NCBI RefSeq assembly: GCF_029024465.1 | Contig: NZ_CP118950.1 | Coordinates: forward strand, 1,178,001 to 1,242,000 | Length of the DNA stretch: 64,000 nucleotides | DNA from: Lactococcus garvieae subsp. garvieae | GTDB lineage: Bacteria > Bacillota > Bacilli > Lactobacillales > Streptococcaceae | Reading direction: 5' to 3' | Part shown: positions 48,737-63,540 of the stretch, piece after piece | Position numbering within the stretch: the stretch's first letter is position 1 | Layout: each line of letters opens with the position of its first letter | Notes under the pieces: generated by a model | Told to the model about the DNA's origin: nothing | What the model saw: only the letters and a program-made list of their open reading frames with translations | Database searches by the model: none | Made by a program: the position numbers and the translations under genes

Positions 48737-49645
48737 TTATTTTAAGGTATTTTCAAATTTATTTTTGACCTTATCTAGCGTTTCTTGAGTCACACGTTGG
48801 GTCTTATTTCCTGGGATTTTAGTCGCATGAACATTTATTTTACTTACCTTAAGCGCCTTATTATAGTGTGTGGCTATATTCATAAACTCTGAGAAGCTGA
48901 TGTTCGTATTGATGACCTCAGGGAAAATTTTCAAAATTGCTAAAGAGTGTCGCGCCAGAACAGAAGGCTTTTTCAAATTCTCAAATGTAGCAATAGCCAC
49001 ATCTTGTAGTCTGTCTGTATAGCCTTTCTGATCGTTGGCGTTAAGCAAGCTGAGGTAAGCTGCAACTTCATCCGCTGTTTTTAACTGGACAGAACCTTGC
49101 TCAAATTTGAGGCCCTTAGATACAAAAGCTGTTGTATTTTGCACAACGATTCCTCCACTTGCCTCGACCAGTTTCCCCATGTTGTCAAAGTTAATTTCCA
49201 CTACTTTATTAGTTTCTGTACCAAAGGTCTCATTAAACTTCTTGCTTACTGCTTCTGCTCCGCCTTGAGTATAACTTTGATAGAGCGTTGTTTGATCTGG
49301 AAAAACTAAAAGAGGTTGAACATTGATGAGACTTGTCTTTTTGAGCTTTGCATTTGTAGAAGTAAGGCTGGATGTCATAAGAACTTGCTCATTATCTACA
49401 TGAGCAGTCCCTAGAATTAAAGTCGTAAATGTTTCTCCTTTCTTTAAGTTTACCGGACGTGCTTCTGCCAGATGCAGAGTATTAGCCTTATTGATGGCTG
49501 TTTTAGAACTTTGATAGAAGAATACTCCTAAGCCAGTAAAAACAAGTATCAAGACTAGTAAAGTGATGCCAATAACTTTAGGAAACTTTCCCTTTTTTTG
49601 AGTAACTTTCTTTCCACCTGACCGTCTATACGTTTCTTTTTCCAT
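48737..49645 (-). CDS. LytR-CpsA-Psr family protein, degenerate active site
   Basis: The 302-residue protein has a basic N-terminus, one membrane helix (about 23-46) and an extracellular LCP domain. LCP enzymes move wall polymers from lipid carriers to peptidoglycan. The usual RSDT motif is replaced by DNEQV, the IPRDT motif by NVQPL, and the later Arg-rich segment keeps only TDRLQDV. Loss of the metal-holding and phosphate-binding residues suggests it no longer transfers polymers, or acts differently. It lies just left of the IS element. Confidence 0.75.
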   Translation of the reverse strand: MEKETYRRSGGKKVTQKKGKFPKVIGITLLVLILVFTGLGVFFYQSSKTAINKANTLHLAEARPVNLKKGETFTTLILGTAHVDNEQVLMTSSLTSTNAKLKKTSLINVQPLLVFPDQTTLYQSYTQGGAEAVSKKFNETFGTETNKVVEINFDNMGKLVEASGGIVVQNTTAFVSKGLKFEQGSVQLKTADEVAAYLSLLNANDQKGYTDRLQDVAIATFENLKKPSVLARHSLAILKIFPEVINTNISFSEFMNIATHYNKALKVSKINVHATKIPGNKTQRVTQETLDKVKNKFENTLK

Positions 49646-49721
49646 AACTCTCTCCTCGTATAATATATTTTATGGGTATTTTTCACCCCAATTTTCTAAC
49701 AATTGTTATCGTTTTACTTGA
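49646..49721 (-). promoter_or_regulatory. Leader and promoter region of the LCP-like gene
   Basis: On the minus strand a TATTATAC -10 and a CGAGGAGAGAG ribosome site precede the ATG. The -35 is unclear. The IS110 element begins about 75 bases from the start, so it could alter expression. Confidence 0.45.
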
Positions 49722-49739
49722 CTATTGTGACGTTTCCCA

Positions 49740-50000
49740 GAATAATTATTCTTAGGAATGGACTCAAAAGGAATATGCTAACTCTCCTTGTTGCTTCGTC
49801 TTCTTCATAAGTCTGCGACCCGAGCTGTATCAAATCTTCCAACTCACTAGCTGTTTCCACCGTGATTACTCTGCTCTTAGTAGCGAGCAGGCGGTAAGTA
49901 ATCGCTGTGATGGGTATTCTAATAAGCGAGGATGAAGGGATACAGAGTTCTGGGGAATCTCTCAGTAGTCAAGTATAGTTTCCTAATCAAATGAAAGGAG
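49740..50000 (+). ncRNA. Candidate bridge RNA region of the IS110 element
   Basis: The non-coding left end is rich in structure. A long hairpin uses GATTACT (49864-49870) with AGTAATC (49897-49903) and CTGCTC with GAGCAG inside. Two further loop-like regions follow (about 49905-49945 and 49953-49982). TAGTCAAGT (49966-49974) is the exact reverse complement of ACTTGACTA at the left junction, and GGTATT (49913-49918) is the reverse complement of AATACC right of the insertion. Exact RNA ends are not known. Confidence 0.5.
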
Positions 50001-50010
50001 GTCCTTCCAA

Positions 50011-51270
50011 ATGAAATGTTTTGTCGGTTTAGACGTCAGCTCTACCAAACTCGATGTGTGCATCATGTCAAATGACACGGAACTTGGAGTCTTGTACGCT
50101 GCTTCACTTACCAATGATATGATTGGTGCTTCTGAAATCAAAGAACAAGTACTCTCACTTAACGAAAAGTATGAATTTAATAGAGTCGTCATTGGCATGG
50201 AAGCCACATCCCTCTACAGTTTTCATCCTGCAATGTTCTTCCACGAAGACTCGGAGTTAAAGCAGCTCGGAGTCGAGGTCATGGTGGAACAACCAGCCAA
50301 AATAAAGAAATATCGTGAGGCATTCGAAGAAAACAAGAATGATACCCTTGATGCTTTCTACATCGCGGATTACTTCCGCATTGAACGCTTTACAAGATCT
50401 TATCTTAAAGAAGAAAAGTATCTGGCACTACAACATCTCACAAGAACTCGACTTCAGCTCGTGGAACAATTAGTACGTACAAAACAACACTTCATTGAAA
50501 ACATCTACTACAAGTGCAATACGCTCTCTGCGGAATTAAAGAATGAAGAATTGAGTACCTCTGTTTGGTCTGCCACAATTATGACACTCATGACCGAAGA
50601 TTACACGCTAGATGAACTCGCAAATACTCCTCTTGAAGATTTCACGGAACTCATCCAGAAACTCGGGCGAGGTCGCTTCAAAGCTCCTGAGAAACTTGCA
50701 AAAGCAATAAAAGCTGCCATAAAAGGAAGTTACCGCTTATCACTCGTCCAACAAGATTCTGTCAATATTGTACTCAGTCTCCTTGCTCGCGAAATACGGA
50801 GTTTAGAGAAGATGATTAAAGAAATTGATCGAGCCATTGAAGACATGGTAGAAATTATCCCTGAATACCAATGTTTGACCAGTGTACCTGGTATTGGAAA
50901 GGTATTCGCTGCAGGAATTATCGCTGAAATAGGACAGATTGAACGCTTTAAAGACCATCCTCAAGTCGCTAAATATGCTGGCTTGAATTGGAAAGAAACA
51001 CAATCTGGCAATACCTCATCTCAAAATACTTCTCTTGCAAAACGAGGCAATCGTTATCTTCGCTATTACTTAGTTGAAGCCGCCAACTCTGTACGAAGAC
51101 ATAACGTGGAATACGCAGAGTTTTACAAGAAAAAGAAAGATGAAGTCCCCAAACATAAACACAAAAGAGCCGTCGTTTTAACCGCAAGAAAACTTGTGCG
51201 TCTGGTGGATGTGCTACTACGCAACCACCAACTCTATACGCCACCAAGGAGGTTTATGGAAGATAATTAG
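50011..51270 (+). CDS. IS110-family transposase (recombinase)
   Basis: The 419-residue protein has an N-terminal DEDD RuvC-like domain: Asp8 in GLDVSSTKLDV, Glu64 in GMEATS, and DTLDAFYIAD with Asp111 and Asp114. The C-terminal Tnp domain contains TSVPGIGKVFAAGIIAEIG and AGLNWKETQSGNTSS, where Ser332 is the candidate nucleophile, then AKRGNRYLRYYLVEAA. The ribosome site AAAGGAGG is strong. The gene looks intact. It inserts DNA under guidance of an RNA in related elements. Confidence 0.93.
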   Translation: MKCFVGLDVSSTKLDVCIMSNDTELGVLYAASLTNDMIGASEIKEQVLSLNEKYEFNRVVIGMEATSLYSFHPAMFFHEDSELKQLGVEVMVEQPAKIKKYREAFEENKNDTLDAFYIADYFRIERFTRSYLKEEKYLALQHLTRTRLQLVEQLVRTKQHFIENIYYKCNTLSAELKNEELSTSVWSATIMTLMTEDYTLDELANTPLEDFTELIQKLGRGRFKAPEKLAKAIKAAIKGSYRLSLVQQDSVNIVLSLLAREIRSLEKMIKEIDRAIEDMVEIIPEYQCLTSVPGIGKVFAAGIIAEIGQIERFKDHPQVAKYAGLNWKETQSGNTSSQNTSLAKRGNRYLRYYLVEAANSVRRHNVEYAEFYKKKKDEVPKHKHKRAVVLTARKLVRLVDVLLRNHQLYTPPRRFMEDN

Positions 51271-51297
51271 TTTTATCTGCACAATTCCTTGTCTAGC

Positions 51298-51324
51298 CTA
51301 GTAAAATTTGCCAAATTTTACTAG
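51298..51324. terminator. Hairpin in the IS110 right end
   Basis: CTAGTAAAATTT/AAATTTTACTAG is a perfect 12-base stem with a three-base loop after the transposase stop. It may end transcription or protect the right end. Confidence 0.55.
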
Positions 51325-51400
51325 ATTCTTTCGTGCTGTCTTTTTTCAAGATTTTTACTCAGAATCTAGCAACTTATCATTTGACTTAATACCACTAGAC

Positions 51401-52291
51401 TTATTTAAGAATGATAAAATCATTAACTGAGCGTTGATCCTGACTCGGGTATATTACTTCGCCCTTGAATGCCATTTGACTTGATCCGCCGCCGTCCAGA
51501 ACCACTGCATTTTTTAAATTCAACTCCTTAAACTTATTCATAATCTGATCATATCCTGTACTTGTATCCGAAATAATAAGGTAAAGGTTATTCTGCGCGT
51601 CATTTGCTATAAAAGAGTGAATCATCCAATTCACTGAACCATCATTTTTTTGAATTTCACCATCACGGATTAGCACCGAACCAAAACTGAAACTCATTTG
51701 CCCACCATTTTCAATGATTGTTGAGGCGGGTACAGAAGAGTCATAGATTTGACTACTGCCGTCGTTATTGATAACAAAGGCATTGTTAGCTCTCTTATCT
51801 GAACCCCAATCCTTAAAAAGTTTTCCATTATTCATCTGAAAGCCTGTGATGTGCATAGTGCTCATATTAAATCCAGAAGCATTCATGATTAAGGCCTCGG
51901 GGTATTTTTGTATAATTTCTTGCAAGGTAAAAGCTGGAGCATCAATCGAAGTTGCCGTTTTTAATACTTCGACATTGTTGGCTTTATAAATTTTAAAACT
52001 GCCCGATGAAAGATCAGTAAACTTCTCGCCCCCCTCTTTCGAGTTTAGTTTTATCGTGCGGGCTTCTCCTGTATCTTTGACAATACTTTCAGAAGACTTG
52101 ACTGCTTCTTTTGAACTGTTGGAGGCAATATAACCTGACTCTTGATCTGTATGTTGTACACTTTGAGCTTGACCATGTGGTTCTTCTTGTTTTTTAGGAG
52201 TCATAATTATAAATGCAGACCAGCCTACAATTAGTAGAAGGCCAAAGCTAATAAACCAACCTAACTTCTTTCGTTTTTTTATCGTTTTCAT
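51401..52291 (-). CDS. Phosphodiester glycosidase family protein, secreted
   Basis: The 296-residue protein has one N-terminal membrane helix (11-31), a Ser-rich linker and a C-terminal NAGPA/DUF2233-type domain: MNASGFNMS, DSSVPASTIIENGG, and VLDGGGSSQMAFKGE. The family removes sugars attached by phosphodiester bonds or trims glycopolymers. It overlaps the next gene by four bases, tying it to the wall-polymer cluster. Confidence 0.85.
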   Translation of the reverse strand: MKTIKKRKKLGWFISFGLLLIVGWSAFIIMTPKKQEEPHGQAQSVQHTDQESGYIASNSSKEAVKSSESIVKDTGEARTIKLNSKEGGEKFTDLSSGSFKIYKANNVEVLKTATSIDAPAFTLQEIIQKYPEALIMNASGFNMSTMHITGFQMNNGKLFKDWGSDKRANNAFVINNDGSSQIYDSSVPASTIIENGGQMSFSFGSVLIRDGEIQKNDGSVNWMIHSFIANDAQNNLYLIISDTSTGYDQIMNKFKELNLKNAVVLDGGGSSQMAFKGEVIYPSQDQRSVNDFIILK

Positions 52292-63404: not shown

Positions 63405-63421
63405 AAAACACTCCAATATAG

Positions 63422-63540
63422 AAAAATTCCCTAGTCCAAGGGCTAGGGAAGGTATCAGAAAATACTCTATAATATACTTTAATTAAGTTCATTCAAGATT
63501 CTGACCTTGCCTGCCTCTCTGGACACACTTAAAGGTTATA
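63422..63540 (-). promoter_or_regulatory. PyrR attenuator leader
   Basis: On the minus strand the promoter TTGCAA-17-TATAAT is followed by GTGTCCAGAGAGGCAGGCAAG, matching the PyrR-binding loop (ARUCCNGNGAGGYU). Further on, TTCCCTAG/CTAGGGAA plus a U-run (63422-63450) is the terminator. UMP-loaded PyrR would favour this terminator and lower the operon's expression. Confidence 0.9.

What the first reader, a model, noticed from the sequence alone, without database searches (positions are those of the whole stretch)
49722..51386. IS110 element with candidate bridge RNA and guide matches
The left end is long and strongly structured, the right end is short, and both ends share TTGACT with a CT core. 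TAGTCAAGT (49966-49974) is the exact reverse complement of the left junction ACTTGACTA (49716-49724), and GGTATT (49913-49918) matches the right flank AATACC. These could be target guides of a bridge RNA. The two matches do not yet fit one clean loop model, and short matches in AT-rich DNA occur by chance. IS110-group RNAs in the left end are established knowledge.
Basis: partly seen in the sequence, partly recalled or inferred. Interest (0 to 1): 0.7.

Follow-up and report, generated by a model that had tools for sequence, protein, structure and literature searches.

The report
RNA-guided element targeting ribosome-binding sites
This is a mobile DNA element of the IS110 family whose predicted guide RNA imitates the ribosome's own Shine-Dalgarno-reading sequence, so that it and its relatives across many Bacilli insert just in front of gene start codons while leaving the gene, even an essential one, its translation signal.

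Summary
Eleven copies, relatives and empty sites in sister species place it at 49655-51401, with CT cores at 49655-49656 and 51400-51401. The ACTTGACTA/TAGTCAAGT match is a covarying closing helix of the RNA; GGTATT has no support as a guide.

The real guides are recoverable: left target guide ACTCTC[CT] (49781-49788), right target guide CATA[AG] (49806-49811), left donor guide CACTAG (49845-49850), right donor guide GCG[AG] (49926-49930). Target guides covary with targets over 54 sites and 25 guide types (0 of 20,000 shuffles). Donor guides covary with element ends (12 of 16 types against 1.6 by chance).

The target is the Shine-Dalgarno sequence A-[AG]-GAG-R: 77 of 90 distinct insertions have a start codon 8-13 nt from the core. 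One copy sits in the Shine-Dalgarno of the genome's only alaS. IS900 of Mycobacterium has the same published target, so the specificity has a precedent; its RNA basis and its spread over Bacilli appear new. Transcription and recombination are inferred by homology, not shown.

The parts
49655..51401 (+). Whole IS110 element with both CT cores (1745 bp counting one core)
   Evidence: 11 copies, end-to-end relatives, empty sites
49646..49654 (+). Left target AACTCTCTC; on the - strand GAGAGAGTT, the Shine-Dalgarno of the gene at 48737-49645 (start codon ends at 49645)
49655..49656 (+). Left core CT
51400..51401 (+). Right core CT
51402..51405 (+). Right target TATT (+1 to +4)
51381..51386 (+). 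-35 box TTGACT of the circle-junction promoter (17-nt spacer across the joined ends)
   Evidence: sequence of the joined ends; conserved in relatives
49659..49664 (+). -10 box TATAAT of the circle-junction promoter
49717..49973 (+). Predicted bridge RNA core, closed by helix 1
   Evidence: 21-sequence alignment and pair counts, z = -4.3
49717..49742 (+). Helix 1, 5' strand (CTTGACTATTG ... GTTTCCCAGAA)
   Evidence: pairs with 49948-49973; 9 of 23 pairs with changes on both sides
49948..49973 (+).
49781..49788 (+). Left target guide ACTCTC[CT], an anti-Shine-Dalgarno-like sequence
   Evidence: covariation with targets, 0/20,000 shuffles
49806..49811 (+). Right target guide CATA[AG]
   Evidence: covariation with targets, 0/20,000 shuffles
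49845..49850 (+). Left donor guide CACTAG (followed by CT 49851-49852); matches right end CACTAG-A-[CT]
   Evidence: covariation with right ends, 12/16 types against 1.6 shuffled
49858..49911 (+). Hairpin between the two donor guides (helices 4 and 5)
   Evidence: 12 of 15 pairs with changes on both sides
49926..49930 (+). Right donor guide GCG[AG]; matches left end [CT]CGT with one G-T wobble
   Evidence: sequence; nearly invariant, so covariation hardly testable
50011..51270 (+). IS110 recombinase, 419 aa; D8, E64, D111, D114 and a C-terminal serine align with IS621

Best explanation
An IS110 element that moves through an excised circle guided by a bridge RNA encoded in its left end. Excision joins right end, CT and left end, which builds a TTGACT-N17-TATAAT promoter expected to transcribe the bridge RNA and the recombinase (inferred). 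One RNA loop holds donor guides that match the element's own ends. The other holds target guides whose left half imitates the anti-Shine-Dalgarno sequence of 16S rRNA (ACTCTC[CT]). The recombinase therefore inserts the circle at A-[AG]-GAG-R Shine-Dalgarno sequences, in one orientation, with the left end facing the gene. AGGAG and the start codon stay together, so the gene keeps a ribosome-binding site; insertions at other matching places are probably thinned out by selection. Shown here: ends, core, empty sites, RNA structure, guide-target and guide-donor covariation, Shine-Dalgarno position. Inferred from IS621: circle, transcription, strand exchange.
For: IS110 protein family and IS621/ISCro4 homology. 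Copies, relatives and empty sites fix the ends and the CT core. RNA: 96.1% of cells paired against 87.1% shuffled and 37-48% slid; 21 of 45 pairs compensatory. Left target guide 5.53/7 against 4.19 and right target guide 2.55/4 against 1.80, 0/20,000 shuffles. Donor guide 12/16 against 1.6. Start codon 8-13 nt from the core in 77 of 90 distinct sites, against 15-35% of AGGAG or AAGGAGA motifs in the window (the stricter 64 of 90 with >=100 codons gives p at most 2.5e-12) and 14 of 30 unoccupied perfect guide matches in the genome. Single-copy alaS with a copy in its Shine-Dalgarno. Junction promoter conserved.
Against: No RNA, circle or recombination has been observed. The guide types are related, so the shuffles overstate significance. 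The left donor guide leaves one donor base unpaired next to the core. Two Enterococcus sites (L044, L095) fit the left guide only with an extra base. Some distant relatives (L128, L130, L134, L140) lack a clear gene start. The right target guide matches only partly at many sites.
Confidence: 0.86

Rival explanations
1. The element inserts with little sequence preference, and the Shine-Dalgarno pattern is only what selection left, because insertion there is harmless.
For: Occupied sites are at starts more often than unoccupied perfect guide matches (10/11 against 14/30, Fisher p 0.014), so selection very probably adds to the pattern.
Against: Targets change with the guides, element type by element type. 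The orientation is always the same and the core always falls on the same base of AGGAG. The intragenic exception L031 is itself a one-mismatch guide site, CTCAC[CT]TATT.
Confidence: 0.06
2. The recombinase protein, not the RNA, reads the Shine-Dalgarno motif, and the left-end structure is a leader that regulates transposase expression.
For: All members target AGGAG-like DNA whatever the RNA details, and positions -1 to -3 hardly vary, so they cannot tell guide from protein.
Against: Positions -4 to -6 and +2 to +4 follow the RNA of each element; the Enterococcus avium guide CACCTT[CT] goes with a shifted register of the target; the donor guide follows the right end. IS621 homologues are RNA-guided (PMC11208160).
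Confidence: 0.05
3. One reading: TAGTCAAGT (49966-49974) and GGTATT (49913-49918) are target guides for the flanks of 49722-51386.
For: Both matches exist in the sequence.
Against: Both 'flanks' are inside the element. TAGTCAAGT is half of a covarying helix. GGTATT is not conserved together with AATACC.
Confidence: 0.01

Closest known systems
IS900 of Mycobacterium avium subsp. paratuberculosis (IS110 family)
   Same: Published target motif CATGNNNNNNTCTCCTT (PMC8141618), the same Shine-Dalgarno motif in the same orientation; reported in 1997 as targeting translation initiation signals (title cited in PMC8141618); rarely inside genes
   Different: Actinobacterial host. The reported rationale is expression of a reverse-strand hed gene; no bridge-RNA explanation was found in the papers searched. 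Its sequence was not compared here.
IS621 / ISCro4 (bridge-RNA IS110 elements)
   Same: DEDD plus serine recombinase, bridge RNA in the left end, CT core, LTG/RTG/LDG/RDG layout, junction promoter (PMC11208160, PMC11208158)
   Different: IS621 targets REP elements and its 177-nt RNA begins with a 5' stem-loop; here the RNA is about 257 nt, closed by a long helix, and the left target guide is anti-Shine-Dalgarno-like. The transposase is longer (419 against about 328 aa).
IS1111 group (seekRNA, PMC11187229)
   Same: Same recombinase superfamily and RNA-guided target choice
   Different: RNA in the right end and subterminal inverted repeats in IS1111; here the RNA is in the left end

Membership tests
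IS110 family (IS110 group) | DEDD_Tnp_IS110 (PF01548) plus Transposase_20 (PF02371) domains | tested here: met
   E 6e-25 and 2.2e-24; NF033542 266.6 bits against cut-off 140
IS110 family (IS110 group) | DEDD residues and catalytic serine | tested here: met
   Aligned with the IS621 and ISCro4 chains at D8, E64, D111, D114 and the C-terminal serine region; activity not tested
IS110 family (IS110 group) | Insertion at a dinucleotide core without longer target duplication | tested here: met
   Empty sites with one CT
IS110 family (IS110 group) | Structured bridge RNA in the left end | tested here: met
   Covarying structure; transcription not tested
IS110 family (IS110 group) | RNA guides pair with target and donor | tested here: met
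   Covariation of guides with targets and ends; biochemistry not tested
IS110 family (IS110 group) | Promoter rebuilt at the circle junction | tested here: met
   TTGACT-N17-TATAAT by sequence; the circle itself was not observed
IS110 family (IS110 group) | Excised circle and recombination activity | not testable with these tools
   Needs an experiment
IS1111 group | Bridge/seek RNA in the right end | tested here: not met
   The RNA is in the left end; the right end has only 131 nt after the ORF
IS1111 group | Subterminal inverted repeats | not tested
   No dedicated search was run; the two TTGACT copies are direct, not inverted
TIGR-Tas | NF052498 above its cut-off | tested here: not met
   57.2 bits against cut-off 100
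IS900-like Shine-Dalgarno targeting | Target of the form CATG-N6-TCTCCTT | tested here: met
   Targets CAT-N5-YTCTC[CT]T-like in 10 of 11 copies compared with the published motif (PMC8141618)

The most novel reading that the evidence does not exclude
A whole clade of RNA-guided IS110 elements across Bacilli has fixed an anti-Shine-Dalgarno target guide, sampling different registers of the 16S rRNA 3' tail, with ends that leave the gene its ribosome-binding site, so that translation starts serve as a universal, nearly harmless address. The same RNA might also pair with Shine-Dalgarno sequences in mRNA, including that of its own transposase (AAAGGAGG just before 50011).
Probability: 0.5. Interest if true: 0.72.

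Novelty: new variant of a known kind. Interest (0 to 1): 0.6.

Why it matters
It gives an RNA-level explanation for a target preference that has been reported for IS900 since 1997, and extends it to Lactococcus, Streptococcus, Enterococcus and other Bacilli. It shows a natural bridge RNA addressed to a motif found at most genes rather than to one repeat family, and an insertion that leaves an essential gene (alaS) its start signal. The short, covarying guide-target pairs (about six plus four positions around CT) are ready to test in a recombinase from Gram-positive bacteria.

Tried and rejected
A first placement of the core one CT further left (CT|CCTCG) was rejected because the Enterococcus avium copies and the guides fit only [CT]CGTAA. 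Rfam has no family for this RNA. An outward promoter in the left end was looked for and not found above chance, so read-through from the gene's own promoter is the likelier route of expression. A T-box before the alaS copy was suspected by eye, but Rfam found none at gathering score. Similarity of the left target guides to the 16S tail is only suggestive (shared word 5.4 nt against 4.5 +/- 0.2 for shuffled letters). In the single L045 case the right donor guide seems to change with the end (GCA[AG] with CTTG), but that site has an extra CT and was not used. No structure prediction was run, because the recombinase has solved homologues.

Full report
WHAT IS THERE. The window carries an IS110-family element. 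Its 419-aa recombinase (50011-51270) matches both IS110 Pfam domains and NCBIfam NF033542 well above cut-off and aligns with the solved IS621 and ISCro4 recombinases. The genome holds 11 copies, ten identical and one with a single-base insertion in the gene.

ENDS. Relatives from other Lactococcus, Streptococcus and Enterococcus align end to end with 49654-51401. Comparison of many flanks puts the core CT at 49655-49656 and 51400-51401: the left flank reads YYYC[CT] and the element begins [CT]CGTA. Joined flanks with one CT match unoccupied loci in sister species. The window's own site in G010 reads ccataactctctcCTtatttaag exactly as in the joined flanks, 95% identical over 442 bp with no gap near the core. 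The sites in rbfA, glpD and alaS are also continuous at the core. Some other sister loci have small indels nearby, or lack the CT by one substitution, and are less clean.

TARGET. On the other strand nearly every site reads as a Shine-Dalgarno sequence: A 85%, [AG], G 90%, A 89%, G 87%, then R 90%. Of 90 distinct left flanks, 77 have a start codon 8-13 nt from the core that opens at least 30 codons, and 64 one that opens at least 100; the commonest distances are 10, 11 and 12 nt. In the window only 15% of AGGAG and 35% of AAGGAGA motifs lie 8-13 nt from a start of at least 100 codons; 64 of 90 against 35% has p = 2.5e-12. The flanks come from Lactococcus, Streptococcus, Enterococcus, other Lactobacillales and more distant Bacilli, with transposase identities down to 38%. 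In this genome 10 of 11 copies are at starts, against 14 of 30 unoccupied perfect guide matches TCTCCTTAT (Fisher p 0.014). So the guide alone explains much of the pattern and selection probably the rest. The exception, L031, lies inside a gene at a site with one mismatch to the guide, as a sequence-guided element would do. The copy L037 sits in the Shine-Dalgarno of the genome's only alaS gene (gene identity read from its translation; one PF01411 match with an open frame of 889 aa), so such insertions must be compatible with expression. AGGAG stays with the gene and the left end reads TACG just before it.

THE RNA. Twenty-one left ends were aligned. The consensus has 45 pairs, 21 with compensatory changes; 96.1% of cells pair, against 87.1% shuffled (0/500) and 37-48% when the partners are slid. 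The window's sequence folds with z = -4.3.

GUIDES. In 25 guide types the left target guide matches its own targets at 5.53 of 7 positions, against 4.19 when guides are dealt to other types; the right target guide matches 2.55 of 4 against 1.80; 0 of 20,000 shuffles reach either value. The informative positions are -4 to -6 on the left (0.91, 0.79, 0.66 against 0.33, 0.39, 0.43) and +2 to +4 on the right. Clear cases: Enterococcus avium guide CACCTT[CT] with targets CACCTT[CT]; an Enterococcus raffinosus plasmid guide ATGCCCTC with target ATGCCCTC; the Enterococcus faecium right guide that predicts AAACA, with targets AAATA and AAACA where most others have T. The left donor guide copies the right end: CACTAG, CATTAG, CATAAG, CACTAT, CGCTGG, CGCAGG and others occur at the same place in the left end, followed by CT, in 12 of 16 types against 1.6 when shuffled (maximum 7 in 5000). 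The match leaves the last donor base before the core unpaired. The shuffles treat types as independent although they are related, so they overstate significance; the effect is nevertheless plain by eye and holds across genera.

JUNCTION PROMOTER. Joining right end, CT and left end gives TTGACT-TAATACCACTAGACTCG-TATAAT, a 17-nt spacer. Relatives keep the arrangement, as TTGACA-N17-TATAGT in the more distant Bacilli. In the inserted state the promoter is split. An internal TTGACT-N17-AATAAT (49718-49746) lies inside helix 1 and would give an RNA without its closing 5' strand.

COMPARISON. It works like IS621 (PMC11208160, PMC11208158) and passes the sequence-level tests of the IS110 group. It differs in its longer, closed RNA and in its anti-Shine-Dalgarno-like target guide. 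The specificity has a precedent: IS900 inserts at CATGNNNNNNTCTCCTT (PMC8141618) and was described in 1997 as targeting translation initiation signals (title cited there). Nine text searches of the open library found no account of Shine-Dalgarno-directed guides in bridge RNAs; subscription papers and most preprints are not in that library. I therefore rate it a new variant of a known kind, not a new kind.

LIMITS. No RNA, circle or recombination was observed. How the target gene is transcribed after insertion is open; read-through from its own promoter is my guess, because no outward promoter exceeded chance. Pairing of the guide with mRNA is speculation.

Noticed in passing
window 63419-63539 (-): PyrR binding-site RNA (RF00515) above its gathering score.
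   Followed up: no
L059 3001-3339 and L060 3001-3338 (Lactococcus plasmids): A left end with an apparently complete bridge RNA but no transposase, cut off just after it next to an IS982 element in L059; a possible stand-alone bridge-RNA relic, again about 10 nt from a start codon.
   Followed up: partly
L146 (Enterococcus faecium plasmid with vanR/vanS nearby): The copy sits at AAGGAAATATG whose downstream frame is short and reads like the C-terminal end of a resolvase by eye: perhaps an intragenic Shine-Dalgarno-like target.
   Followed up: no
window 49996-50005: The transposase's own Shine-Dalgarno (AAAGGAGG) is complementary to CTCCTT of the left target guide: possible self-regulation, and a possible self-target that mismatches the guide at -4.
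   Followed up: no
window 51298-51324: Palindrome CTAGTAAAATTTGCCAAATTTTACTAG after the transposase gene.
   Followed up: no
L088 and L091, right flanks: Two copies in one genome share the same right flank (CCTGTATACTG, fitting their unusual right target guide AGG[AG]) but have different left flanks, which suggests recombination between copies.
   Followed up: no
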